Made by a program: the position numbers and the translations under genes
Notes under the pieces: generated by a model
The model's database searches: none
Told to the model about the DNA's origin: nothing
The model's input: the letters and a program-made list of their open reading frames with translations, nothing else
NCBI GenBank assembly: GCA_027065045.1
Contig: JAMOOX010000041.1
Location: forward strand, 1-64,000
Reading direction: 5' to 3'
Length of the DNA stretch: 64,000 nt
Source of the DNA: Campylobacteraceae bacterium
Lineage (GTDB): Bacteria > Campylobacterota > Campylobacteria > Campylobacterales > Sulfurovaceae
In this document: in pieces, positions 4,137 to 42,813 of the stretch
Layout of the letters: the number at the start of each line of letters is the position of its first letter
Position numbering within the stretch: the stretch's first letter is position 1

Positions 4137-5039
4137 TTATTTAAATGCTTTAATATAAACTCTTTTTGGTGCAGGATAACCCTCCACCGTTTTACTTCTA
4201 TCATTTGGGTCTAAAAAGTCCTCTAAACTCTGTTCATAAACCCATTTTGTGGCTCTTTGTTCATCAGCAGTTGTAACCATTGTTTCTAATACTTCTACTC
4301 TATTAAACCCTGCTCTTTTACACCAGTTAATAAGTGCTGGGATTGTAGGGATAAAATATATATTTGGTATTTTTGAGTATCTTTTATTTGGAGTGAGTGC
4401 TATCTCATCATCTCCATCTATCATAAAAGTATCCAAAATCAATTCACCATTTTTATTAAGTGAGTTATATAGAGATTTAAGCATAGCGATTGGGTCGCTT
4501 CTATGATAAAGGACTCCAAGACAAAAGAGAATATCAAACTTATGATGATAATACTCAATATGTTCTACCCCTAACATCTCATAAATTATATCACTCTTGA
4601 TAAAATGATTTATAAATTTAAACTGTGTATAAAATATAGCTGATGGGTCAAACCCTACCAACCTTTTGGGGTTCTCTTCTAACATTCTAAAGAGATAATA
4701 TCCATTATTACAACCAATATCTCCAACAATTTTATCATTAATATCAAAATGAGGTCTAAGTAAATCATATTTGATATTACTTCTCCACTCTGTATCAATC
4801 ATTAAATTATTGATAGCAAATGGTCCTTTTCTCCAAGGAATATGAGCCTTTGCCAACTCCTCTATTTTATCAATATCATCTTGCGAAGCATCTTCTATTT
4901 TGATAGTAATTGCATCATTAAACTCTACTTCTATATTATCAAATGAGGGCAAAGCAGAGATGGACTCTACTCGTGGAATAATATTTTTCCAAGTGAGCCA
5001 TTTCTCTCTCTCTGCTTTTATCTTATCAATATCTATCAT
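4137..5039 (-). CDS. cmoB: tRNA U34 carboxymethyltransferase
   Basis: CmoB transfers the carboxymethyl group of carboxy-SAM to 5-hydroxyuridine-34, giving cmo5U in tRNA wobble positions. The 300-residue protein has the family block WRKGPFAINNLMIDTEWRSN, SAM-site motifs VGDIGCNNGYYLFRML and LVGFDPS, then FDILFCLGVLYHRSDP. E. coli CmoB is 323 residues, so this form is slightly shorter at the N-terminus. The carboxy-SAM synthase CmoA is not in the window. The gene is 2 bp downstream of the cyclophilin gene. Confidence 0.95.
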   Translation of the reverse strand: MIDIDKIKAEREKWLTWKNIIPRVESISALPSFDNIEVEFNDAITIKIEDASQDDIDKIEELAKAHIPWRKGPFAINNLMIDTEWRSNIKYDLLRPHFDINDKIVGDIGCNNGYYLFRMLEENPKRLVGFDPSAIFYTQFKFINHFIKSDIIYEMLGVEHIEYYHHKFDILFCLGVLYHRSDPIAMLKSLYNSLNKNGELILDTFMIDGDDEIALTPNKRYSKIPNIYFIPTIPALINWCKRAGFNRVEVLETMVTTADEQRATKWVYEQSLEDFLDPNDRSKTVEGYPAPKRVYIKAFK

Positions 5040-34402: not shown

Positions 34403-34434
34403 GGCAAGAGGATACAAATAATTTATTTTAGATA
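34403..34434 (+). pseudogene. Scar of a second integrase gene (3' tip)
   Basis: These 32 bp match the 3' end of the element's integrase gene (35757-35788) at 31 positions and encode WQEDTNNLF-stop, against GQEDINNLF-stop. They lie just outside the left attachment repeat, in the same orientation. This suggests an earlier related element at the same site that has since been lost. The 380-bp gap (34287-34669) otherwise holds only the ppnP promoter, attL and arm-type repeats. Confidence 0.65.
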
Positions 34435-34438
34435 AACA

Positions 34439-34477
34439 GTATTTAATATTTATATTGGTGGAGATGAGGGGAATTGA
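34439..34477. repeat. attL (39-bp direct repeat)
   Basis: Exact copy of 42399-42437. It carries a 22-bp tmRNA 3'-end fragment (GGTGGAGATGAGG region), then diverges to element sequence. Confidence 0.9.
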
Positions 34478-34626
34478 TATACCACTTTTACACACTAACC
34501 TTAAACAATAGTTATCAATAGCTAACATTAATCTACAATAGCCACAACATAGGGTATAATAGCAGTATTAGTAATCATTAGTATTAATCAACATTAGATA
34601 TTAAGAATATACAATAAGTATCAAAG

Positions 34627-34648
34627 TTGGTTACATATAGGTTACACT
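34627..34648. repeat. Integrase arm-type repeat, left copy
   Basis: A 22-bp sequence containing GGTTACATATAGGTTACACT, found again at 42316-42337 in the same orientation. Both lie inside the element, about 60-190 bp from its ends, and each has an inner GGTTACA/GGTTACA direct repeat, as expected for arm binding sites. Confidence 0.65.
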
Positions 34649-34669
34649 ATTTTATTATCAAGGATATTT

Positions 34670-35785
34670 ATGTGTAGTGGCAAAGATATTAAATCTAAAA
34701 AGTATGTTGGGGTTGTGTATAGAGTGCTTAGGGATAAATCAAAGACTTTTTACATCATCTATAAGCACCCAATAGAGAAACGAACCATAAGGACTAAGAT
34801 AGGCAGTTCTAAAGAGGGAATGAATGAGGCTTATTGTAATAATATAAGATTGGAAGAGATAGCCAAGGCACGGTTAGGAGAAGATAGTAATTTACCAATA
34901 GTAAGAGCCAAGCAAAACAAGACTAATCTTGATGATTTAGCAAATAATTATATTGAGTATCTATCAACTAAAGGTAATAATAAAACTACTACACAAGCTA
35001 AGAGTAGGTATGAGAGATATTTAAAATCAACAGTTGGAGAGTTACAATTATCACAGCTTAATAAAACACATCATAAAAAAATGCAAGATAATCTTGTAGC
35101 TACAAACTTATCACCAACAACAATTAATCACATTTTGACTTTATTGAGTACAATCATAAATTATAATATCAAAAATGATTTAATAAAAGGGGTTAATCCT
35201 TTGATTGGAGTGAAGTGTCTAAAAACAAATGATAAAAGAGATAGGTATTTAGAAGTAGAAGAGCTTAACAAACTATTTAAGCATACTAAAAAAGATGATA
35301 CTCTACATCTATTTACACTATTAGCACTTAGCACAGGGGCAAGGCTTAATGGGTTATTGAGTATCAAGGTTAAAGATGTGGATTTACTAAAGAAGAAAAT
35401 AACAATCAATGACTTTAAGAGTGGTGGAACTTATCAAGGATTTATCAAAGATGATATGATAGAGCTTCTTATTAGAGCTATGGAGGGGTTTAATAGTGAT
35501 GATTATGTGATAAGCTATGATAATGGGTCAAAGTGTAATGATAAGATGATACAGAGGAGGCTACAACCAATATTAAATAAGCTTTTTAATCAAGAGGTAG
35601 AGAATGGATTGAGTAAGGTTGTAATACATACTCTAAGGCATACATTCGCTTCACTTCTTGCTATCAATGATGTATCAATCTATAAGATAATGAAGCTTAT
35701 GAACCACAAGGATATAACTATGACAATGAGATACGCAAAGCTTAGTCCAAGTAGTGGGCAAGAGGATATAAATAATTTATTTTAG
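34670..35785 (+). CDS. Tyrosine recombinase (site-specific integrase)
   Basis: Catalyses integration and excision at ssrA. The N-terminal arm-binding part (~10-70) is followed by a SAM-like core-binding domain (LANNYIEYLSTKGNNKTTTQ) and a catalytic domain with the Arg in LSTGARLNGLLSI, HTLRHTFASLLA (His-x-x-Arg), and MNHKDITMTMRYAKL (His/Trp position and nucleophile Tyr). 371 residues. It lies beside attL and points into the element, the normal arrangement. Confidence 0.95.
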   Translation: MCSGKDIKSKKYVGVVYRVLRDKSKTFYIIYKHPIEKRTIRTKIGSSKEGMNEAYCNNIRLEEIAKARLGEDSNLPIVRAKQNKTNLDDLANNYIEYLSTKGNNKTTTQAKSRYERYLKSTVGELQLSQLNKTHHKKMQDNLVATNLSPTTINHILTLLSTIINYNIKNDLIKGVNPLIGVKCLKTNDKRDRYLEVEELNKLFKHTKKDDTLHLFTLLALSTGARLNGLLSIKVKDVDLLKKKITINDFKSGGTYQGFIKDDMIELLIRAMEGFNSDDYVISYDNGSKCNDKMIQRRLQPILNKLFNQEVENGLSKVVIHTLRHTFASLLAINDVSIYKIMKLMNHKDITMTMRYAKLSPSSGQEDINNLF

Positions 35786-35811
35786 ATATAATTTTAAAAA
35801 AGGAGTTTACT

Positions 35812-36207
35812 ATGGTAGCAATACAACAACCAAACTATCTTAATATTGAGTTACCAACTCTAAAGGTTGGTTCAATATTTAAAGTTATTAGTGCATATAT
35901 TACAATGGCTAGAACATTAAATAGTATGAGAAAAATACTCAAATTTCAATTTAATAACTTTGAGGCTTTTATCAAAATATATAATCTTGATACACCTGAT
36001 AAAGTTGATAATATATTAATTAAATTAGAAAATATGTCAGAGCAACACAATATAAGTTTAAATAATGCACTATTAAATAAATGGTATGCTTATCCATTAT
36101 ATTATTTAGTTGATAGAATAGAGGATTGGAATATGGCATTACAAGGGCTTTTAATGTCTTTAGATGTTGAGTTGGTACATCAGGAGAAACAACTTAATGA
36201 TAATTGA
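35812..36207 (+). CDS. Putative antitoxin-like partner of RelE-type toxin, unknown family
   Basis: 131 residues, AAGGAG before the ATG. It begins MVAIQQPNYLNIELPTLKVG and is otherwise helical (FNNFEAFIKIYNLDTPDKVD). I recognise no DNA-binding or antitoxin domain. Its stop overlaps the RelE-type toxin start by 11 bp, and AGGAG inside its 3' end serves the toxin, so the pair is translationally coupled in antitoxin-toxin order. The role is inferred from this arrangement only. Confidence 0.6.
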   Translation: MVAIQQPNYLNIELPTLKVGSIFKVISAYITMARTLNSMRKILKFQFNNFEAFIKIYNLDTPDKVDNILIKLENMSEQHNISLNNALLNKWYAYPLYYLVDRIEDWNMALQGLLMSLDVELVHQEKQLNDN

Positions 36208-36484
36208 AAAAAGAACAAGATACCAAAGAGATTTAAAGAAACTTATCAAATCAAATACTTTGACTTTAGAGAAAATAGAAGAGTGTGAGAGATTATTTAA
36301 AGATGATTATAAACACAACTCTTTGAGGTATCATAGTATCAAATGTAAAAAAGATAAAAATAGATATTCTATTACTGTACCAAATACACAATATAGAATA
36401 TTAATGTCTGTAAAAGATAATATAGCATATTTTAAAAGTTTATTAAATCATAATGAATATGATAGAATAAATAAAAATTGTTAG
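36197..36484 (+). CDS. RelE/ParE-family toxin
   Basis: 95 residues, very basic. MIIEKRTRYQRDLKKLIKSN is the usual first strand and helix; LRYHSIKCKKDKNRYSITVP and TQYRILMSVKDN resemble the RelE/ParE beta-sheet with basic residues. RelE toxins cut mRNA at the ribosome and ParE toxins poison gyrase; which applies is not clear. ATG 36197 is preferred: AGGAG lies 10 bp upstream, while the longer frame from 36164 lacks one. It probably stabilises the element. Confidence 0.75.
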   Translation: MIIEKRTRYQRDLKKLIKSNTLTLEKIEECERLFKDDYKHNSLRYHSIKCKKDKNRYSITVPNTQYRILMSVKDNIAYFKSLLNHNEYDRINKNC

Positions 36485-36718
36485 TTCTACTACAACCTTA
36501 TTTTATATCAAAACTAGAAATTAACTAATTCAAAAAAGTTCACTAAGTCAAATTTTCGCTTGTTTTTTCTTTACATACACCATAACCTATAATATGCTTT
36601 AAAGTGCCGTATAATGGGCTTTAAATGGCTTTTAAATAGTGTTTAAAATTTTACATATACCTATAAGTTTTATACAAAGTGTAAAAGTTTTGTTGATTGA
36701 GTGTCAAATAATGTAAAG

Positions 36719-36831
36719 GGCAAAGTAGGGCAGGAGTTGAACCTGCAATAGTAGGTAATTTTTTACCGTTTCACCTGATAAACGGTATAGTTTTACCCTT
36801 TTGTTACCACATTCCTACATCATACTTTGCC
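36719..36831 (-). ncRNA. tRNA-like RNA with long variable-type arm
   Basis: On the minus strand the ends pair over 9 bp (GGCAAAGTA with TACTTTGCC). A perfect T-arm is present: GCAGG-TTCAACT-CCTGC, a canonical TTCRANY loop. A D-loop-like stretch AGGAATGTGGTA lies between TGT and ACA. A 7-bp hairpin, ACCGTTT/AAACGGT, sits where a class II variable arm would be. A TATACT box about 7 bp upstream would start transcription at the first G. It is not a regular tRNA: no encoded CCA, an over-long acceptor with one mismatch, and no clean 7-nt anticodon loop. The rest of the 383-bp gap is AT-rich with no gene seen. Confidence 0.45.
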
Positions 36832-36867
36832 TATAAAAGTATATCAAATCTTTTGACATTCTTTACA

Positions 36868-37083
36868 CTATTTTACACTTTTTAATATTTTTCTCACATT
36901 GGTTACAGTTGTATTATATTTATATGCTAATTGAGAATAGTTATATCCATTGAACTCTTTTATTATTTTCTCTTTATAGTTGGGTGATTTTTTGGGAATG
37001 TATATCTCTATGCCACCATAGGAATTATACATATCTTCAAGAGTAGCACCGTTTTTAATATCTTCAAAAATATATTCTATCAC
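36868..37083 (-). CDS. Mor-like transcription activator
   Basis: 71 residues starting with GTG. GGIEIYIPKKSPNYKEKIIK and the C-terminal helix-turn-helix FNGYNYSQLAYKYNTTVTNV RKIL resemble the C-terminal half of Mor, the middle-gene activator of Mu-like phages. It is shorter than Mor (about 130), lacking most of the dimerisation domain. It could activate the tRNA-like RNA just downstream or element late genes; that is inference. Confidence 0.65.
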   Translation of the reverse strand: MIEYIFEDIKNGATLEDMYNSYGGIEIYIPKKSPNYKEKIIKEFNGYNYSQLAYKYNTTVTNVRKILKSVK

Positions 37084-37130
37084 TTTATAATTACCTTTTT
37101 AATATTTGATATATCTAATATTATATCACA

Positions 37131-37255
37131 CCTAAACTATTAGCTAAGGTGGAATATTTGATTATGGTTCTAAGTTCTTTTTTATTATTAATTCTCTTTA
37201 GATATATAGAGCAGATAATAATATTTAGTATCAAGTTTAAACAGTAAAAATAGAA
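37131..37255. repeat. Tandem 124-bp direct repeat, unit 1
   Basis: Begins CCTAAACTATTAGCTAAGGTGGA. The next unit follows at an offset of 124 bp with high identity, including GTTCTAAGTTCTTTTTTATT and AATATTTAGTATCAAG. Non-coding. Possible replication or partition site. Confidence 0.75.
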
Positions 37256-37378
37256 CCTAACTATTAGCTAAGGTGGAGCATTTGATTATAGTTCTAAGTT
37301 CTTTTTTATTATTAATTCTCTTTGAATATATAGAGCATATAATATAATATTTAGTATCAAGTAGAGAGTAGTAAAAAT
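37256..37378. repeat. Tandem 124-bp direct repeat, unit 2
   Basis: Second, slightly diverged unit (CCTAACTATTAGCTAAGGTG at the start). The 481-bp gap 37084-37564 contains these repeats and the iterons, with no gene. Confidence 0.75.
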
Positions 37379-37481
37379 ACTACAACTAAGCAAATGATAA
37401 AAGAGGGTATAGAATAGGATATATCAAAAATCTTAAAAGTGCCTCTATATCGTGGGGTGTAGAGAGTAGTTTATTGGTGTG

Positions 37482-37553
37482 AAAAAAGGTCGGAATTACA
37501 ATCTATATCAACCTTGAAAAAGGTCGGATTTGGTAGATTGTAAAAATGTCGGA
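37482..37553. other. GTCGGA iterons with inverted repeat: possible replication origin
   Basis: AAAAAGGTCGGA at 37483-37494 and 37517-37528 and AAAAATGTCGGA at 37542-37553 form three direct iterons. Between them ACAATCTA (37498-37505) and TAGATTGT (37534-37541) make an 8-bp inverted repeat. Iterons around a hairpin are typical of initiator binding sites; the element encodes a rolling-circle-type initiator. Confidence 0.45.
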
Positions 37554-37564
37554 GTTTAAAAAAG

Positions 37565-38254
37565 CTAAATAACCGTAAAATACAAATCTAAAATTTCAGC
37601 GTTATCTTTTATAAAAGAACAATGCTCTATAAAAATAAAATCACTTTGAGGAATTATTTTATTAAAATGTGCATCGTCATTAACCTTGATAATACTTCTT
37701 ATAAAAAGTCCTTGCTCTTTTTTAGCTATTTTAGAATTAGATATATTTTGAATAATATATATTTTATTAGTATTATAAAATATATCTTTTAAATCTCTTA
37801 TATTAGTAAAAAACTCTTTATATATTTGGTTTTTTGTTTTATTTGAGGCATTTATTATTTGATAATTTTTCCCTATCTCATTTAAATAATGTGTAATTAT
37901 ATCTGTTTGAAATTCTAATCTTCTTTGAGTTAGAGCAGGTAAAAAAGCCACTTGCCTAGTATGTAATCTTTTATTATCTTGCAATATCTCCGTTATCCTT
38001 TGTTCTAAAAAACAAATATAATCACACGAACTATCAATATCATTTTCATACATATCACCAACACCACTTATAAGCCAATTCAAATTAATATCAAACTCTT
38101 TTTTTAATAAATTTGATAATTCACCATTAATATTTTTACCTTTTAAAAGAGTAGCATAATTACTATTTTGCATATTTAATAAGTTTGCAAAACTCTTTTT
38201 ATTAAGTTTTTTATCTTCTCTTATCTCTTCAACTCTACTATAAAAATCTATCAT
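37565..38254 (-). CDS. Phage-type repressor (HTH N-terminus)
   Basis: 229 residues. The N-terminal ~70 residues form an XRE-like helix-turn-helix (KKSFANLLNMQNSNYATLLK) ending in INLNWLISGVGDMYEND, the usual phage repressor phrase. The C-terminal ~130 residues have no S24 Ser/Lys peptidase motif I can see, so induction may not go through RecA cleavage. It is divergent from the early operon, with a 10-bp inverted repeat between, as in a lysogeny switch. AAGGA lies 8 bp before the ATG. Confidence 0.8.
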   Translation of the reverse strand: MIDFYSRVEEIREDKKLNKKSFANLLNMQNSNYATLLKGKNINGELSNLLKKEFDINLNWLISGVGDMYENDIDSSCDYICFLEQRITEILQDNKRLHTRQVAFLPALTQRRLEFQTDIITHYLNEIGKNYQIINASNKTKNQIYKEFFTNIRDLKDIFYNTNKIYIIQNISNSKIAKKEQGLFIRSIIKVNDDAHFNKIIPQSDFIFIEHCSFIKDNAEILDLYFTVI

Positions 38255-38320
38255 TTGTCTTAATCCTTTATAAAAAGTTATCTACTTTTAAGTTTAAATA
38301 GTTTATCATTCTAAAGTTAT

Positions 38321-38356
38321 AAGTTATTAATGCTAACTATTAAGGGTTAATAACTT
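38321..38356. promoter_or_regulatory. Operator-like inverted repeat in the switch region
   Basis: AAGTTATTAA (38321-38330) and TTAATAACTT (38347-38356) are exact inverted 10-mers with a 16-bp spacer. Another AAGTTAT lies at 38314-38320. The site sits between the divergent repressor and early operon, next to TATTATAC (-10-like). Confidence 0.55.
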
Positions 38357-38398
38357 TATTATACATATTATACCAAAAAACAACAAAAAGGGGTAAAA

Positions 38399-38638
38399 AT
38401 GAGTAACTATGAGCAGTTAGTTAAGGATTTAAAAAAGACTTACGGTAAAAGCACTATAAACTTATCAGAGTTGGCTAATGAGTTAGGGCAAAGCATAGCC
38501 ACGATTAGAAGAGGTATTAAAAACGGTAAAGGTATTCCAAAGTATCGCCGTGTAGGTGGTGGAGTAACTAGACAAGCCGTGGTATTTCCTATTCTTGAAG
38601 TTGCTAGGTTTTTATCACAAACAGAAGAGGTTTATTAA
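38399..38638 (+). CDS. Small helix-turn-helix protein (excisionase/Cro-like)
   Basis: 79 residues. STINLSELANELGQSIATIR followed by RRGIKNGKGIPKYRRV is a winged-helix/HTH pattern as in AlpA/Xis-type proteins. It is the first gene of the early operon (TAATG overlap with the next) under the operator region, so it may be excisionase, Cro-like, or a replication regulator. Confidence 0.65.
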   Translation: MSNYEQLVKDLKKTYGKSTINLSELANELGQSIATIRRGIKNGKGIPKYRRVGGGVTRQAVVFPILEVARFLSQTEEVY

Positions 38639-39201
38639 TGAGAGCTACGATTGGAGAGTTACAAGCATTGCATACTATTGGGCTAGATGAGTTGTTGAAA
38701 AATGATGAGTTGGTATCAATAGCACCAATACGAGGTTATGTGATAGAAGAGTTTAAGAGTGATATTATAAGAGATATACCAAATATTGATATTGATGAGT
38801 ATATGGAGAAGCTAGAGAGAGATTATCAAATATTTCATAGTTTAAAGTTTAATATTATTGATAGAGTTTATAGTTGGAATGAAGACAGGGGCTTATTAAA
38901 TGGTGGATATAACAAGAGTTTAGAGGCTAGTTTTATAGCAGAAGAGCTAAGCGAATTATTGAGAAATGATGAGAGCATAGAAGAGGTAGATAGTCATATT
39001 GATAGTATTATATTTCAATTAGGAGCATTGAGTAAAATATTAAAATCACCTCACCGAGTGAAAAGAGCTTTTGAAATTGTATTGAGTGCAAACGAACAAA
39101 AGAGCAGTCAAAAAGATATTAACGGTAAAATTATCAAAGATAAATCAAACTTTATAGAGCCACAAGAGGCACTAAAAGAGTTATTAGAAGAGGTGGTATA
39201 G
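38638..39201 (+). CDS. MazG-like/PRA-PH-like nucleotide pyrophosphohydrolase
   Basis: 187 residues. The central part, SFIAEELSELLRNDESIEEV then DSHIDSIIFQLGALSKI, follows the all-alpha NTP-pyrophosphatase pattern (EExxE...ExxD), with HisE-like phage versions as the closest form. These enzymes remove NTP or (d)NTP variants; the phage roles include changing nucleotide or alarmone pools. The last acidic motif is DxxxD rather than ExxD. It is coupled by one-base overlaps to genes on both sides. Confidence 0.6.
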   Translation: MRATIGELQALHTIGLDELLKNDELVSIAPIRGYVIEEFKSDIIRDIPNIDIDEYMEKLERDYQIFHSLKFNIIDRVYSWNEDRGLLNGGYNKSLEASFIAEELSELLRNDESIEEVDSHIDSIIFQLGALSKILKSPHRVKRAFEIVLSANEQKSSQKDINGKIIKDKSNFIEPQEALKELLEEVV

Positions 39202-39446
39202 TGGAATTAGAGGTTATTGATATTCACGATGAACTATTTAACTTGATTAATCAACTTGATTATATACTTGTGGCACACCATAATTATATTATGGAATTAG
39301 CAGATAATAACAGCGAACAAATGCAAAATGAGTTAAGTGGTTTTTATAATTTACAAGTACGATTATTAAAGGATTTTAGAGCCTATTTATTAGCATTAGA
39401 CCCTCATATAGATATACTATCTTCATTGAGAGTGGAGAATAACTGA
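39201..39446 (+). CDS. Small element-borne protein, unknown function
   Basis: 81 residues starting with GTG that overlaps the previous stop. Acidic and helical, MELEVIDIHDELFNLINQLD onward, with no recognised domain. It lies between the MazG-like gene and the initiator gene in the early operon, 3 bp before the latter. Confidence 0.6.
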   Translation: MELEVIDIHDELFNLINQLDYILVAHHNYIMELADNNSEQMQNELSGFYNLQVRLLKDFRAYLLALDPHIDILSSLRVENN

Positions 39447-39449
39447 TAA

Positions 39450-40442
39450 ATGTCAGCTACTAAAACTATTATAGATATACCGTTAGATATGGCTTCTAAT
39501 GTCAATAATGGGTTAATGTATAAACAGATAGGTATTGATACAATTCATATAGTAGCAAGATATACAACAGTACAAAAGATGATAGATAAACAAGGGCTAA
39601 CAATAGATAAAGCCAAAAAAAATACACCTTATTCAAGAGTAATAAATAAAGCTCTAAGAGAGGTTAAGAGTGATGAGAAGAGAAGATATAAAAAAGATGA
39701 GTTTAGACCAACTGTTGAAGTAGTACAGATGAGCAAGGGCAAAATATTATCTAATTATATGATGATAGTGAGATATACACCTCTTTTGATGGATTATGCA
39801 AGAGAGCAAAAAAAGGCAAAAGGTGAGTATTGTATGGTGATTTTTAGTGGGCTACATCAACCTACCAAAGATACAAAAAGCCAATCAATCAAGATAATAA
39901 GTAAGTTTTTAAAAAGAAAAACTTTTAAAATGATTAGTTTAGATATAGCTATTGATACGATAGATAATCAGGTGATAAACTATAAATCAAAAGATAGATT
40001 TCAAGAGAGATTAAAGCCATATTCAAACAATGGTGTAATTTCAAATGGTAGTAGTCTATATATTAATAATATATCAGATAATAGAGTAAGTAGAGTTATA
40101 TACTATGATAAATATAAGAAGCAAATGCAACAAGGTCAAGAGTTGGATAGTAGTCTATTAGGTTGGAATAGACTTGAACTAACTTTTAGTAGTAGCATTA
40201 GAAGTAGTGTAAGCTTTATAGAGTATGTGGAGAGTATGGGGCTTATTGATGATTTGGCACGATTACAAGAGTTAGCAGGTAAATTAAATATAGAACCTAG
40301 CACATCATATTTAAACTACCAAATTAATTCTATTATGGATAATAGATATATTAATAATAATATGAGTAAGAAGAGGTTTAATAGTTTTGAAGTGATTAAG
40401 AGGTTTATCCAAAAGGATTTTAGAAATTATGCTTTATTTTAA
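39450..40442 (+). CDS. Rolling-circle-type replication initiator (filamentous-phage type)
   Basis: 330 residues, basic. GEYCMVIFSGLHQPTKD, MISLDIAIDTIDN, SRVIYYDKYKKQMQQ and SLLGWNRLELTFSSSI follow the order of the Rep_trans/inovirus initiator family (RxDxxxD strand, YDK, WxRxEL). Such proteins nick the plus origin and start rolling-circle replication. The nucleophilic Tyr cannot be picked with confidence. The element's iterons at 37482-37553 are the candidate origin. Confidence 0.7.
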   Translation: MSATKTIIDIPLDMASNVNNGLMYKQIGIDTIHIVARYTTVQKMIDKQGLTIDKAKKNTPYSRVINKALREVKSDEKRRYKKDEFRPTVEVVQMSKGKILSNYMMIVRYTPLLMDYAREQKKAKGEYCMVIFSGLHQPTKDTKSQSIKIISKFLKRKTFKMISLDIAIDTIDNQVINYKSKDRFQERLKPYSNNGVISNGSSLYINNISDNRVSRVIYYDKYKKQMQQGQELDSSLLGWNRLELTFSSSIRSSVSFIEYVESMGLIDDLARLQELAGKLNIEPSTSYLNYQINSIMDNRYINNNMSKKRFNSFEVIKRFIQKDFRNYALF

Positions 40443-40506
40443 AAGCATTTAGAAGAGATAAATAGTTGAAGCTATATCTCTCCTATTAACCTACGAGGTC
40501 AATGAA

Positions 40507-41898
40507 ATGATACAAAAAAAAACATTAGATACAGATTACAACATAAGAGAGCAAATGAACAAAGATAACTCAATGAATGAGATTGAGGTAAGTCGTGGCA
40601 TAGGGTCTTATTTCCCTATCTTTATATCATTAGGAATAACTTTATACGGTATGTATTTATTTATATCTACAATCACAAAAAATGAGAATATTATATATGG
40701 TACATTAGGATTTATGGCTATATTGATACTATTTATAGAGGCTCATAGAACTGATTTACTAAAAGACTTTTTATCTAGCAAACTTACCAGGGAAATACAC
40801 ACTGATTTTAAAATATCAAATTTTGCTCTATTTATGAGTGGTGTTATTACTGCTTTGTTTATTAGTCTTGACCTATGGGGTGCATTACAATCAAGTGATA
40901 AGATTGAAAGATTATTGGTTGTTGGTATAGTAGAGAATTCCAAAGAGTATCAGATACTAGATAATAAAGCTAAGTCAGGAGCAGAAGCTAATAAAATATA
41001 TTCTGATAGATTAAATTTATACAATCAAGCTAAACAATCGCATTATAAGAGTTGTAATGATAGTTGGCAAATAAGAAGATATAGAACCAAAAATACAGAA
41101 TGTAAGAATAGCTTCAAACAGATACCACCAAAACAGAGCAGTATCAAAGTAGGCGATACAGTATCATCTGATGATTATGAAAGATTAAGCTCTAAAGCTA
41201 AAGAAACTATACAAGGATATAGAGATATTTTCTTTTATGTGTTTTTTGGTTTCAGCTTGTTACTTAATTATTTTGCAGTATCAACTCTTGTAAATCAATA
41301 TAGAAACAAACTAAGAGAGCTATCAGATGAAGCGACTAAAAGTGAGCTATTAAATAGATATGAGATACTAGAGAATGAGAAGCTTAATAAACTAAAAGAG
41401 AGTACAAAAATACAACATATCAAGACTAATGAAAAGAATGTAATTGATGTTGCGATGGAGGGTCTAACCTATGATATATTACTAGCGAAAAGTTATAAAT
41501 CTTTGGAGGGTATGAAGAGAGTACCAATAGCTATATCTAATAATCAATCTATCAATCAAGGTAATAGAGGTGGCTTTATGGATTTAGGTAAAACCGTAAA
41601 TACTAAACAGTATATACCGAATGAAGAGACTATCGGTAATACCGAACGGTATATACCGAATGGTAACAATACAATTGATTACTCTTTGTTTGATATACAA
41701 GAGCAGGAGCTTATTAGCTTATTGTTTGATAACGGTAATATACCGATTGGTGGTCAATTAGTAAAAAGGGATATTATATTAGATATAGTTGGTCATAATA
41801 AACCTAATGCTAACAGGCTAAGAGACCTATATTCAAAGTTAATGGAACTAGATTATATATATAAAAAAGTTGCTTATTTTTCAAAGGCAACGATATAA
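40507..41898 (+). CDS. Four-TM membrane protein with C-terminal winged helix, unknown function
   Basis: 463 residues. Transmembrane helices at ~36-53, 60-79, 107-128 and 242-263; a Cys-containing loop (~130-240) between the third and fourth; a coiled-coil stretch (~265-300); then a linker with YIPNE/YIPNG repeats; the last ~70 residues (LISLLFDNGNIPIGGQLVKR onward) resemble a winged helix. No Walker A, so it is not a Zot-type ATPase. It may couple membrane state to DNA binding. GAGG precedes the ATG. Confidence 0.65.
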   Translation: MIQKKTLDTDYNIREQMNKDNSMNEIEVSRGIGSYFPIFISLGITLYGMYLFISTITKNENIIYGTLGFMAILILFIEAHRTDLLKDFLSSKLTREIHTDFKISNFALFMSGVITALFISLDLWGALQSSDKIERLLVVGIVENSKEYQILDNKAKSGAEANKIYSDRLNLYNQAKQSHYKSCNDSWQIRRYRTKNTECKNSFKQIPPKQSSIKVGDTVSSDDYERLSSKAKETIQGYRDIFFYVFFGFSLLLNYFAVSTLVNQYRNKLRELSDEATKSELLNRYEILENEKLNKLKESTKIQHIKTNEKNVIDVAMEGLTYDILLAKSYKSLEGMKRVPIAISNNQSINQGNRGGFMDLGKTVNTKQYIPNEETIGNTERYIPNGNNTIDYSLFDIQEQELISLLFDNGNIPIGGQLVKRDIILDIVGHNKPNANRLRDLYSKLMELDYIYKKVAYFSKATI

Positions 41899-42146
41899 AA
41901 AAATTTATATTAAAAAGTGTATTGTGTGGTATAGTTTTATTTATTGGAGTTGTTGCAGATACTAAGCTAGATATGTCTAGCCCTAATGGGTTTTGTAAAT
42001 CTGTTACCAAAGATGATGTAGAGCTTAAGAAGTGCATTAAACAATATAGTAAATCTTGCTATTGTGATAATGATATTTTAATAGTTAAAGAGATAATTAG
42101 ATTAGCAGAAGATTTTAAAAAAATATCACTTAAACAATTATATTAA
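41895..42146 (+). CDS. Small exported four-Cys protein, probable ATA start
   Basis: From ATA at 41895 the frame reads KKFILKSVLCGIVLFIGVVA, an ideal signal peptide, then DTKLDMSSPNGFCKS and a mature part with four Cys (C-x-C pairs, CYCDN). The first standard start, TTG at 41922, would cut off the basic end of the signal and has no ribosome site. AAAGG (41883-41887) lies exactly 7 nt before the ATA, which overlaps the previous stop (ATATAA). 83 residues; function unknown. It is the last gene before the right end. Confidence 0.65.
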   Translation: MKKFILKSVLCGIVLFIGVVADTKLDMSSPNGFCKSVTKDDVELKKCIKQYSKSCYCDNDILIVKEIIRLAEDFKKISLKQLY

Positions 42147-42229
42147 ATATACTATAGGTATTGTCAATCCTGAACGGACAAAGTTGAAATTTAAATAAAA
42201 TCAGTATAATATCAATCACTACATATAAA

Positions 42230-42254
42230 AGCTATAAGATTTTTTCTTATGGCT
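42230..42254 (-). terminator. Probable ssrA transcription terminator inside the element
   Basis: On the minus strand AGCCATAAG-AAAAAAT-CTTATAGCT (one G-U) is followed by TTTATAT, downstream of the tmRNA 3' end. The element would thus supply the terminator for ssrA after insertion. The rest of 42147-42398 is AT-rich and carries the second arm-type repeat. Confidence 0.5.
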
Positions 42255-42315
42255 AATCAAAAAACAATCATATAAAATATTTTAAATTTACTCAAAAATA
42301 GCCAAAAATAGGTAT

Positions 42316-42337
42316 TTGGTTACATATAGGTTACACT
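42316..42337. repeat. Integrase arm-type repeat, right copy
   Basis: Exact 22-bp match to 34627-34648, same orientation, 62 bp inside attR. Confidence 0.65.
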
Positions 42338-42398
42338 TTTGTTAAATATGCTAACCTTAAAGTATGCCTTTTGATACGGTATAGTAGGGTTAAAATAG

Positions 42399-42437
42399 GT
42401 ATTTAATATTTATATTGGTGGAGATGAGGGGAATTGA
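42399..42437. repeat. attR (39-bp direct repeat at the ssrA 3' end)
   Basis: Exact copy of attL; its right 22 bp are the tmRNA 3' end including the CCA. Confidence 0.9.
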
Positions 42438-42813
42438 ACCCCTGTCCTAAAATAGATAGAACTATGACTCTACATGCTTAGATGATGTTGTTAAATTTAA
42501 TCTTGCTTTGTACTACACCCAAAACTTTACAAGACGAGTCTAAAGATTCATTTAAAAGCTAGACAACAATTAAATATAGTCATCAGATGTGATACCTCAA
42601 GTGCAAAGCACCTCCAACTTAATGAAATCTAGTTAAGATGACACTCCCTAGCGAGGCAGTCCTCCGACGAATCGGGGTTAAAACTTACGCTACTGCGTAA
42701 GCTGGACGGTAATCTGTATTGTTTGCGTTTAAATGCGTTGAGCCGTATAACGGAATTGCTCAGTCCGACATGCACATAGCCCCGACTACTCCAGTCGAAA
42801 CCAAGTCATCCCC
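42416..42813 (-). ncRNA. ssrA: tmRNA
   Basis: Rescues stalled ribosomes. The 5' end GGGGATGACTTGG pairs with the 3' CATCTCC before ACCA; GGTTCAATTCC is the T-arm. The tag frame (42726-42685) encodes ANNTDYRPAYAVA then TAA. It is one-piece, about 398 nt. Its 3' end is the attachment site of the element on its left. Pseudoknot regions are GC-richer than the surroundings. Confidence 0.96.

What the first reader, a model, noticed from the sequence alone, without database searches (positions are those of the whole stretch)
34439..42437. 8-kb ssrA-integrated element with a filamentous-phage-type initiator but no coat or Zot gene
It combines a tyrosine integrase, a lysogeny-like repressor switch, a rolling-circle initiator, a MazG-like enzyme, a RelE-type pair, a tRNA-like RNA and a four-TM/winged-helix protein. 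No morphogenesis or conjugation gene is recognisable. It could be a phage satellite, a minimal integrative plasmid, or an inovirus whose structural genes are not recognisable. This is my best candidate for an undescribed system in the window.
Basis: partly seen in the sequence, partly recalled or inferred. Interest (0 to 1): 0.75.

Follow-up and report, generated by a model that had tools for sequence, protein, structure and literature searches.

The report
Integrating rolling-circle element, new family
An 8-kb DNA parasite inserted in a bacterial RNA gene carries its own integration and rolling-circle copying genes but no recognisable particle or conjugation genes; it belongs to an apparently undescribed family in Sulfurovum-related bacteria and carries an odd tRNA-like RNA that also occurs in unrelated phage gene clusters.

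Summary
34439-42437 is an integrated mobile element with a perfect 39-bp att duplication at the 3' end of ssrA, an integrase, a repressor/excisionase pair, a replication initiator and accessory genes. No coat, Zot, terminase or conjugation gene is recognisable.

It is not an orphan. A sister element (~9 kb, tRNA-Leu, another family) shares int, xis, MazG-like gene, initiator, arm-type sites and an origin-like array of three 15-bp iterons at identical 34/25-bp spacing. Eleven further loci in Sulfurovum-related genomes hold related elements or fragments, at tRNA genes or ssrA where a site is visible. The initiator has the Rep_trans fold and most of its motifs (pT181 plasmids, MOBT relaxases, CTXphi). 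Zot is found in 0 of 8 carrier genomes, so an inovirus is unlikely. Best reading: a helper-dependent integrative element that excises, replicates by rolling circle, and is passed on by conjugation (IME-like) or transduction (satellite-like). Which one is open.

Unexpectedly, the tRNA-like RNA is real. Nineteen distinct copies with strongly covarying acceptor and T stems and no common anticodon loop occur in these elements, in Mu-type head gene clusters and beside a CRISPR array. Rfam found none of the 18 copies scanned; ARAGORN names one of 20.

The parts
34439..34477 (.). attL, 39-bp direct repeat
   Evidence: exact repeat of 42399-42437
42399..42437 (.). attR, 39-bp direct repeat overlapping the 3' end of ssrA
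42416..42813 (-). ssrA (tmRNA), the host target gene
   Evidence: ARAGORN; Rfam RF00023 E 2e-55
34627..34651 (+). arm-type repeat, left (TTGGTTACATATAGGTTACACT...)
   Evidence: 96% identical to the right copy; the 20-bp core occurs exactly near one att end of the sister element
42316..42340 (+). arm-type repeat, right
34670..35785 (+). tyrosine integrase, 371 aa
   Evidence: 47% identical over 369 aa to the sister element's int
35812..36207 (+). o131, likely antitoxin partner of the RelE-type gene
   Evidence: overlaps relE; pair conserved in L076/L089 (39%)
36164..36484 (+). RelE/HigB-type toxin, 106 aa
   Evidence: phrog_3066 E 0.0013; 58% homologue in L076/L089
36719..36831 (-). tRNA-like RNA without a regular anticodon loop
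   Evidence: -10-like TATACT 12 bases upstream
36868..37083 (-). o71m, small protein of unknown function
   Evidence: 53% homologue in L053/L083, 32% in L076/L089
37135..37344 (.). two 86-bp direct repeats (37135-37220, 37259-37344), 93% identical, in non-coding DNA
37483..37556 (+). three iterons AAAAAkGTCGGAdTT at 37483, 37517, 37542 (spacing 34 and 25): candidate replication origin
   Evidence: same repeat and same 34/25 spacing in L011, L054, L078; 37440-37560 folds better than shuffles, z -4.51
37565..38254 (-). CI-like repressor, 229 aa
   Evidence: phrog_8 E 1.9e-8, phrog_4 E 8.4e-8
38399..38638 (+). excisionase/AlpA-like HTH protein, 79 aa
   Evidence: phrog_66 E 4.4e-5; 41% homologue in L011
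38638..39201 (+). MazG-like nucleotide pyrophosphohydrolase, 187 aa
   Evidence: phrog_671 E 9.1e-7; 60% homologue in L011
39201..39446 (+). o81, small protein just upstream of rep
   Evidence: 38% homologue just upstream of a rep in L053/L083
39450..40442 (+). Rep_trans-type rolling-circle initiator (Rep), 330 aa
   Evidence: AlphaFold pLDDT 80.9; initiators 4cwe, 4cwc, 4cij at Z 9.5, 9.4, 8.5; invariant D30, D165, Y219, W239-x-R-x-E243 in 18 of 18 rows of A6
40507..41898 (+). 463-aa four-TM protein with C-terminal wHTH-like domain
   Evidence: 71% copy on contig C164 of the same genome
41922..42146 (+). short ORF with hydrophobic N-terminus and cysteines (true start uncertain)

Best explanation
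An integrative rolling-circle element. Shown by sequence: a site-specific element in ssrA with int, repressor/xis switch, Rep_trans-type initiator, origin-like iterons and cargo. Inferred: when the CI-like repressor is lifted, Xis and Int excise a 7,960-bp circle; Rep nicks at an origin near the three iterons and replicates it by rolling circle (MazG-like and RelE-type proteins help or stabilise it); the circle leaves by borrowing another element's machinery, then reintegrates into ssrA. The borrowed machinery is either a conjugation channel (Rep doubling as a MOBT-like relaxase) or a phage particle filled with concatemers; the first two rivals below are these two sub-readings. It is not an inovirus.
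For: Exact att duplication. Sister element with the same core gene order cI<- ->xis-mazG-x-rep and int at the other end, bounded by tRNA-Leu and a copy of its 3' end (the repeat read by eye). Shared arm site and identical iteron spacing in four elements from four genomes: window, L011, L054, L078. Relatives whose integrase lies beside tRNA-Leu (L053, L077, L081), tRNA-Met (L078), tRNA-Ala (L076) and an ssrA end (L080). Element absent beside ssrA in 4 of 4 genus mates fetched. Rep fold: Foldseek E 1.4e-6, prob 1.0, Z 9.5; motif IV exact and motif III YxK kept in 18 of 18 rows (motif list from passages of PMC5714925). Zot in 0 of 8 carrier genomes. No VirB4 and no phrog_2 terminase in the own genome, completeness 99.94.
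Against: No excision or replication data; no reads. Pfam PF02486 matches 0 of 18 Rep proteins. Motif I (RxD) appears as xxD and motif III's E as K in the window copy. No clean two-flank empty site: in G403 only the ssrA/GGDEF side is conserved. Att repeats of the other relatives were not worked out. No transfer gene was recognised, so the mode of transfer is a guess.
Confidence: 0.72

Rival explanations
1. Sub-reading 1, integrative and mobilizable element: Rep is (also) a MOBT-like relaxase and the element is mobilised by a conjugative helper.
For: IMEs with MobT/Rep_Trans proteins are described in streptococci (45 of 118 IMEs with RCR-initiator-related relaxases; some listed with TA genes; PMC5704250 passages). 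Same fold and mostly the same motifs here. VirB4 in 3 of 8 carrier genomes and in 0 of 3 genus mates searched. A small plasmid-like contig in the same genome carries the same 463-aa cargo family and a Mob-like gene (Mob reading from a recalled HxH motif, no relevant Pfam hit).
Against: Own genome and G021 have no VirB4. No coupling protein recognised. MOBT is described as a Firmicutes family and typically has an N-terminal HTH (PMC6499999 passages), not evident in Rep here (residues 1-18 below pLDDT 50).
Confidence: 0.35
2. Sub-reading 2, small phage satellite (PICI/PICMI-like) packaged as rolling-circle concatemers in a tailed helper phage.
For: Layout int / divergent repressor-excisionase / replication gene / accessory genes resembles PICIs (recalled) and the minimalist PICMIs (int, alpA, primase; plasmid-like rolling-circle replication, packaged as concatemers; PMC10803314 passages). 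Rep relatives are in 11 of 50,697 phage records, all of Campylobacter or Helicobacter, at 30-36% identity, and in 3 IMG/VR contigs. The tRNA-like RNA is shared with Mu-type head gene clusters.
Against: No terminase small subunit, capsid-redirecting or packaging gene recognised. No phrog_2 terminase in the own genome (one family only). Initiator type differs from the primase of PICMIs. The RNA was not found in the Rep-bearing phage loci searched (L009, L010, L012-L014, L016, L096-L098 among 26 sources).
Confidence: 0.35
3. Inovirus or inovirus satellite (RS1-like) with unrecognised structural genes.
For: CTXphi's initiator is in the Rep_trans family (PMC5714925 passages); BFVD fold hits include two proteins named as Inoviridae replication proteins (E 1.4e-5 and 4.6e-4).
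Against: Zot found in 0 of 8 carrier genomes, own included. No IMG/VR hit for the 463-aa family or for Rep alone. The 463-aa family also occurs on a contig with a Rep_3 initiator, so it is not tied to this replicon as a coat or assembly protein would be.
Confidence: 0.06
4. Degenerate, immobile remnant.
For: Some relatives are broken: a 463-aa homologue is split by a stop in L086, and L095 keeps only a 48-residue rep fragment.
Against: The window's int, xis, rep and 463-aa genes are open over the length of their relatives, att repeats are perfect, arm sites 96% identical.
Confidence: 0.15

Closest known systems
IMEs with MobT/Rep_Trans proteins (streptococci)
   Same: tyrosine integrase at one end, 3'-end target gene, Rep_trans-type initiator, TA genes in some, no own conjugation channel
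   Different: Campylobacterota; Rep below Pfam detection; tmRNA site here; repressor-xis switch; conserved 34/25 iteron array; tRNA-like RNA
PICIs / PICMIs (phage satellites)
   Same: int, repressor/AlpA-like regulator, own replication gene, accessory genes, no capsid genes
   Different: rolling-circle Rep_trans-type initiator instead of a primase; no terminase or packaging gene recognised; no helper known
CTXphi/RS1 and other inoviruses
   Same: Rep_trans-family initiator, repressor
   Different: no Zot/pI, no recognisable coat; own tyrosine integrase; ssrA/tRNA sites
pT181-type rolling-circle plasmids
   Same: Rep_trans fold and most catalytic motifs
   Different: chromosomally integrated with int/xis and a lysogeny-like switch
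CJIE4-type and Helicobacter prophages
   Same: ~30-36% identical Rep gene among early genes; int 44% identical over 226 aa in L096, an IMG/VR contig of the same length as Helicobacter prophage BK070149
   Different: 30-39 kb phages; the CJIE4-1 record is classed Caudoviricetes, BK070130 has a terminase gene

Membership tests
Rep_trans initiators (for the Rep protein) | Rep_trans fold | tested here: met
   Foldseek E 1.4e-6, prob 1.0 to 4cij (Geobacillus initiator); Z 9.5/9.4/8.5 to 4cwe, 4cwc, 4cij against 6.1 for the next, unrelated chain
Rep_trans initiators (for the Rep protein) | motifs N' D, I RxD, II T/SxY/ExG, III YxKxxE, IV W/LxRxE | tested here: inconclusive
   A6: D30, D165, Y204, Y219, K221, W239, R241 and E243 invariant in 18 of 18 rows; motif IV exact, III YxK kept without E, II SxYxN in the window copy, I without R; motif list; register set by eye
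Rep_trans initiators (for the Rep protein) | match to Pfam PF02486 | tested here: not met
   0 of 18 members match at E<=0.1
Inovirus | Zot/pI ATPase in the element or genome | tested here: not met
   PF05707 in 0 of 8 carrier genomes; the control rings in 5 of 14 genomes; no Zot among the Pfam hits of the 10 element proteins scanned
IME | encodes its own excision/integration | tested here: met
   int, xis-like gene and att repeats; activity not tested
IME | relaxase or oriT and mobilisation by a conjugative helper | not testable with these tools
   Rep is relaxase-like by fold only; VirB4 in 3 of 11 genomes searched, not in own
PICI/PICMI satellite | int plus regulator plus replication gene, no capsid genes | tested here: met
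   replication gene of another type
PICI/PICMI satellite | phage-dependent induction and packaging (abstract of PMC6092414) | not testable with these tools
   no helper known; needs infection experiments
tRNA (for the tRNA-like RNA) | 7-bp acceptor, 7-nt anticodon loop, recognised by tRNA models | tested here: not met
   acceptor-like stem longer than 7 bp in most copies (L053:7309 has 7 with a mismatch), middle arm without a common anticodon loop; ARAGORN finds 1 of 20 copies, L053:7309 as Lys; Rfam 0 of 18 copies scanned, the two of L053 not scanned

The most novel reading that the evidence does not exclude
The element is the founding member of a satellite-like family that parasitises phages of Campylobacterota and shares with Mu-type phages a previously undescribed tRNA-mimicking RNA (tRNA elbow and acceptor, no anticodon) that acts against a host defence or the host translation/tRNA-processing machinery.
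Probability: 0.2. Interest if true: 0.85.

Novelty: new variant of a known kind. Interest (0 to 1): 0.58.

Why it matters
It defines a family of very small integrative rolling-circle elements in a phylum where none turned up in the searches made here, with a testable origin (three iterons at fixed spacing). The tRNA-like RNA is the more surprising part: one RNA architecture with strong covariation and no common anticodon loop is carried by these elements, by Mu-type phage gene clusters and by a CRISPR-side cluster, yet the tRNA and RNA-family tools used here miss nearly all copies. That makes the question 'what do mobile elements gain from anticodon-less tRNA mimics?' directly testable.

Tried and rejected
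Inovirus: set aside because Zot is found in 0 of 8 carriers. A match of Rep to G056:C102 (E 5.1e-4) lies inside a 464-aa ORF of another kind and is taken as chance. The Rep profile against PDB sequences gave 5 PAN2 chains at E 0.16-0.27, dropped. First scans of genome and viral contigs with Rep alone found nothing; profiles gave 14 and 3 loci. A fixed-gap DNA pattern for the RNA gave 0 of 298 genomes, the own genome included, because the window copy's spacer exceeds the pattern's limit of 41; covariance models replaced it. A similar pattern scan of IMG/VR gave 0, with a like limit on the spacer. Blastn of one Mu-type copy against phages and of the window copy against plasmids gave 0 each. The 463-aa structure model is too poor to search with (pLDDT 50.9) and was not searched. 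PADLOC at E<=0.1: of 7 window proteins only RelE matched (PD-Lambda-2_A, E 0.0035); the sister element's IrrE-type protein matched capP (E 3.7e-5). G+C does not set the element apart (0.279; 82 overlapping windows elsewhere span 0.271-0.317). Alignment A13 was made but its pairs were not counted. The -10 boxes were not tested against a chance control. Literature: 10 searches, top listings only, plus passages or one section of five papers; none seen describes this family or the RNA. The library holds open PMC papers and no preprints.
Full report
What was checked. The 39-bp repeats at 34439-34477 and 42399-42437 are identical, and the right one overlaps the 3' end of ssrA (42416-42813, minus strand). 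A second pair of repeats, TTGGTTACATATAGGTTACACT-type, lies inside each end (34627-34651 and 42316-42340, 96%). Their 20-bp core occurs exactly near one att end of another element, as expected of integrase arm sites. In four of four genus mates fetched, no int- or rep-like ORF lies beside ssrA. A clean two-flank empty site was not found: in G403 only the ssrA/GGDEF side is conserved (82% over 1,194 bp).

Genes. Int, the CI-like repressor with a divergent excisionase-like gene and the MazG-like gene (phrog_671 E 9.1e-7) are as stated. The MazG-like family is rare: 4 of 398 order genomes match at E <= 0.001, only own and G021 strongly, and no phage record. The RelE-type toxin is weak alone, but the o131/relE pair recurs side by side in L076/L089. 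The initiator has no relevant Pfam match in 18 homologues. Its AlphaFold model (pLDDT 80.9) matches rolling-circle initiators of the Rep_trans kind: 4cij, Foldseek E 1.4e-6, prob 1.0; 4cwe, 4cwc and 4cij at Z 9.5, 9.4, 8.5 against 6.1 for the next, unrelated chain. In alignment A6, D30, D165, Y204, Y219, K221, W239, R241 and E243 are invariant in 18 of 18 rows. By eye they fit the Rep_trans motifs listed in PMC5714925 (passages read): N' D; motif II SxYx-; motif III YxK, whose tyrosine would be the catalytic one and lies in a strand of the model (213-220); motif IV WxRxE. Motif I's arginine and motif III's glutamate are not kept. So the fold is met, the motifs mostly, the Pfam model not.

Relatives of the initiator. 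In an order-wide sample 7 of 298 genomes match at E <= 0.001 (one, G056, looks spurious). In the family 7 of 175 match with the profile. Among annotated phages 11 of 50,697 records match at 30-36% identity, 7 of Campylobacter and 4 of Helicobacter. Of three neighbourhoods read, one has a terminase gene, one record is classed Caudoviricetes, and the third shows no structural gene in the stretch read. Of 72,556 plasmids none matches. A profile scan of GTDB contigs gave 14 loci: 12 with most of rep and 2 with 65- and 48-residue pieces. Titles name uncultured Sulfurovum, 'Campylobacteraceae' and unclassified MAGs, a MAG labelled Helicobacter cetorum isolate SulCav (the sister element), and Sulfurospirillum (one remnant). 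IMG/VR gave 3 loci at 29-31%.

The family. The sister element in G021 (L011/L092) runs from tRNA-Leu (L011:7150-7233) to a copy of its 3' end near L011:16208-16226 (read by eye; a run of N lies inside). It carries int (47%), a cI-like gene, xis (41%), MazG-like (60%) and rep (44%) in the same layout, with IrrE-type (Pfam M78), YafQ- and RelE-type accessory genes where the window has o131/relE and the 463-aa gene. In other relatives the integrase lies beside tRNA-Leu (L053, L077, L081), tRNA-Met (L078), tRNA-Ala (L076) or an ssrA end (L080, 82% over 45 nt); their att repeats were not worked out. L053, L078 and L081 hold two rep genes each, as if elements were paired. The three 15-bp iterons beside cI in the window (37483, 37517, 37542) recur with exactly the same 34- and 25-bp spacing in L011, L054 and L078, and two of them at 34 in L051; of 14 loci scanned the others show single, looser or differently spaced matches, or none. 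A fixed-spacing array in otherwise diverged DNA is the best candidate for the Rep-dependent origin. That Rep binds it is inference. Similar letters also turn up near the 3' end of several rep genes, where they encode a conserved SDFR-type stretch, so single copies mean little.

The 463-aa protein. Homologues are found in 14 of 175 family genomes; many of the weaker hits cover only the C-terminal domain. None in phages or IMG/VR. A 71% identical copy lies in the window's own genome on contig C164, 5,139 bp, whose first 124 bases recur at position 4610, with a Rep_3 initiator and a Mob-like gene (motif recalled). In Sulfurovum-related genomes it lies downstream of rep, with a short TM or exported-type protein between them in L047, L051 and L053. 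Four hydrophobic segments, two cysteines kept in 9 of 9 rows before the last segment and a C-terminal wHTH-like domain suggest a membrane protein with a cytoplasmic DNA-binding tail. Look-alikes with a similar C-terminal domain sit in chromosomal places (L055, L056, L057) and beside a ParA-like gene (L059). My guess, unproven, is membrane anchoring/segregation or exclusion of the replicon; it is cargo shared between replicons.

Helpers. Zot: 0 of 8 carrier genomes. VirB4: 3 of 11 genomes searched, all three carriers, not own or G021. phrog_2 terminase: 3 of 11, not own, present in G021 (one terminase family only). These do not decide between conjugation and transduction, but they argue against an inovirus and show no resident helper of these three kinds in the own genome.

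The tRNA-like RNA. Comparison of the window copy with other loci found two more copies in L053 with unrelated acceptor-like stems but shared D-loop-like (AATGTGGTAAC) and T-arm (GGTTCAACTCC) sequence. A covariance model from these three found matches in 7 of 175 family genomes. A second, from ten copies, found them in 11 of 398 order genomes at E <= 1e-4. Over 20 copies, 19 distinct, the acceptor and T stems are 99.1% paired with 71 double-changed cells; 0 of 500 shuffles reach this, and slid controls pair at 46-60% (first ten copies). The alignments were fitted to this structure, so the counts lean towards it. The middle arm varies from a tetraloop to a long hairpin; no common anticodon loop is seen. 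A hexamer within one mismatch of TATAAT starts 11-15 bases upstream of the stem in 14 of the 17 copies examined; the exceptions are two inner members of a tandem cluster and L124, whose coordinates were misplaced in that script; three copies were not examined and no chance control was run. Contexts: this element family (3 copies: window, two in L053); between a Mu-type minor head gene and a neck/tail gene in L117, L119 and L126 (PHROG-tested), with the same arrangement by sequence look in L118, L121 and L125; beside a neck gene in L109; three in tandem next to a CRISPR array of at least 15 repeats in L108; the remaining seven in DNA I did not assign. In the seven phage-side loci named the RNA runs against the neighbouring phage genes. 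It was not found in the Rep-bearing phage loci searched. Rfam matched none of 18 copies scanned; ARAGORN names one a tRNA-Lys. Function unknown; my preferred guess (about 0.3) is a tRNA decoy carried as an extra gene.

Verdict. A real mobile element, member of a small and apparently undescribed family, working like an integrative rolling-circle plasmid/IME or a minimal satellite. IMEs with Rep_Trans/MobT proteins are known in streptococci (PMC5704250, passages; PMC6499999, passages). Minimalist satellites packaged as concatemers after rolling-circle-like replication are known in Vibrionaceae (PMC10803314, passages). PICI features are from the abstract of PMC6092414. Hence 'new variant of a known kind', with an RNA that may deserve more.

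Noticed in passing
window 34403-34434: Just outside attL lies a 32-bp stretch 97% identical to the 3' end of int (35757-35788): probably a scar of an earlier or tandem element at the same site.
   Followed up: partly
L108:1-1456 (G419:C20): CRISPR array of at least 15 repeats followed by three tandem tRNA-like RNAs with three different acceptor-like stems.
   Followed up: partly
L109:3949-4893 (G432:C327): 31-nt repeats, three of them at 66-bp period, flank a stretch with a phage neck-gene piece and a tRNA-like RNA, as if a phage fragment sat inside a CRISPR-like array; could be an assembly artefact.
   Followed up: no
L044 (G000:C164): A 5.1-kb contig with a 124-bp terminal recurrence, a Rep_3 initiator, a Mob-like gene and a 71% copy of the 463-aa protein; the far end diverges from the start (81% over 80 bp), so two related small plasmids may be present.
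   Followed up: partly
L059:6650-9820 (G521:C80): A 585-aa membrane protein with a similar C-terminal domain lies upstream of a ParA-like gene (ParA name from sequence look).
   Followed up: no
L055:9284-10612, L056:2659-3732, L057:3769-5097: Chromosomal look-alikes of the 463-aa protein's C-terminal domain in the same gene neighbourhood, near trigger-factor-like and clpP-like genes (names recalled from sequence).
   Followed up: no
L124:1377-1466 (G021:C55): The genome with the sister element also has a tRNA-like RNA, on another contig.
   Followed up: no
L053:7451-8038, L077:3209-3796, L081:10425-11012: A 195-aa protein that looks like the catalytic half of a tyrosine recombinase follows the integrase in several relatives (L053 copy tested).
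   Followed up: no
window 37135-37344: Two 86-bp direct repeats in non-coding DNA, 93% identical, near the iterons; one copy folded alone is weaker than shuffles.
   Followed up: partly
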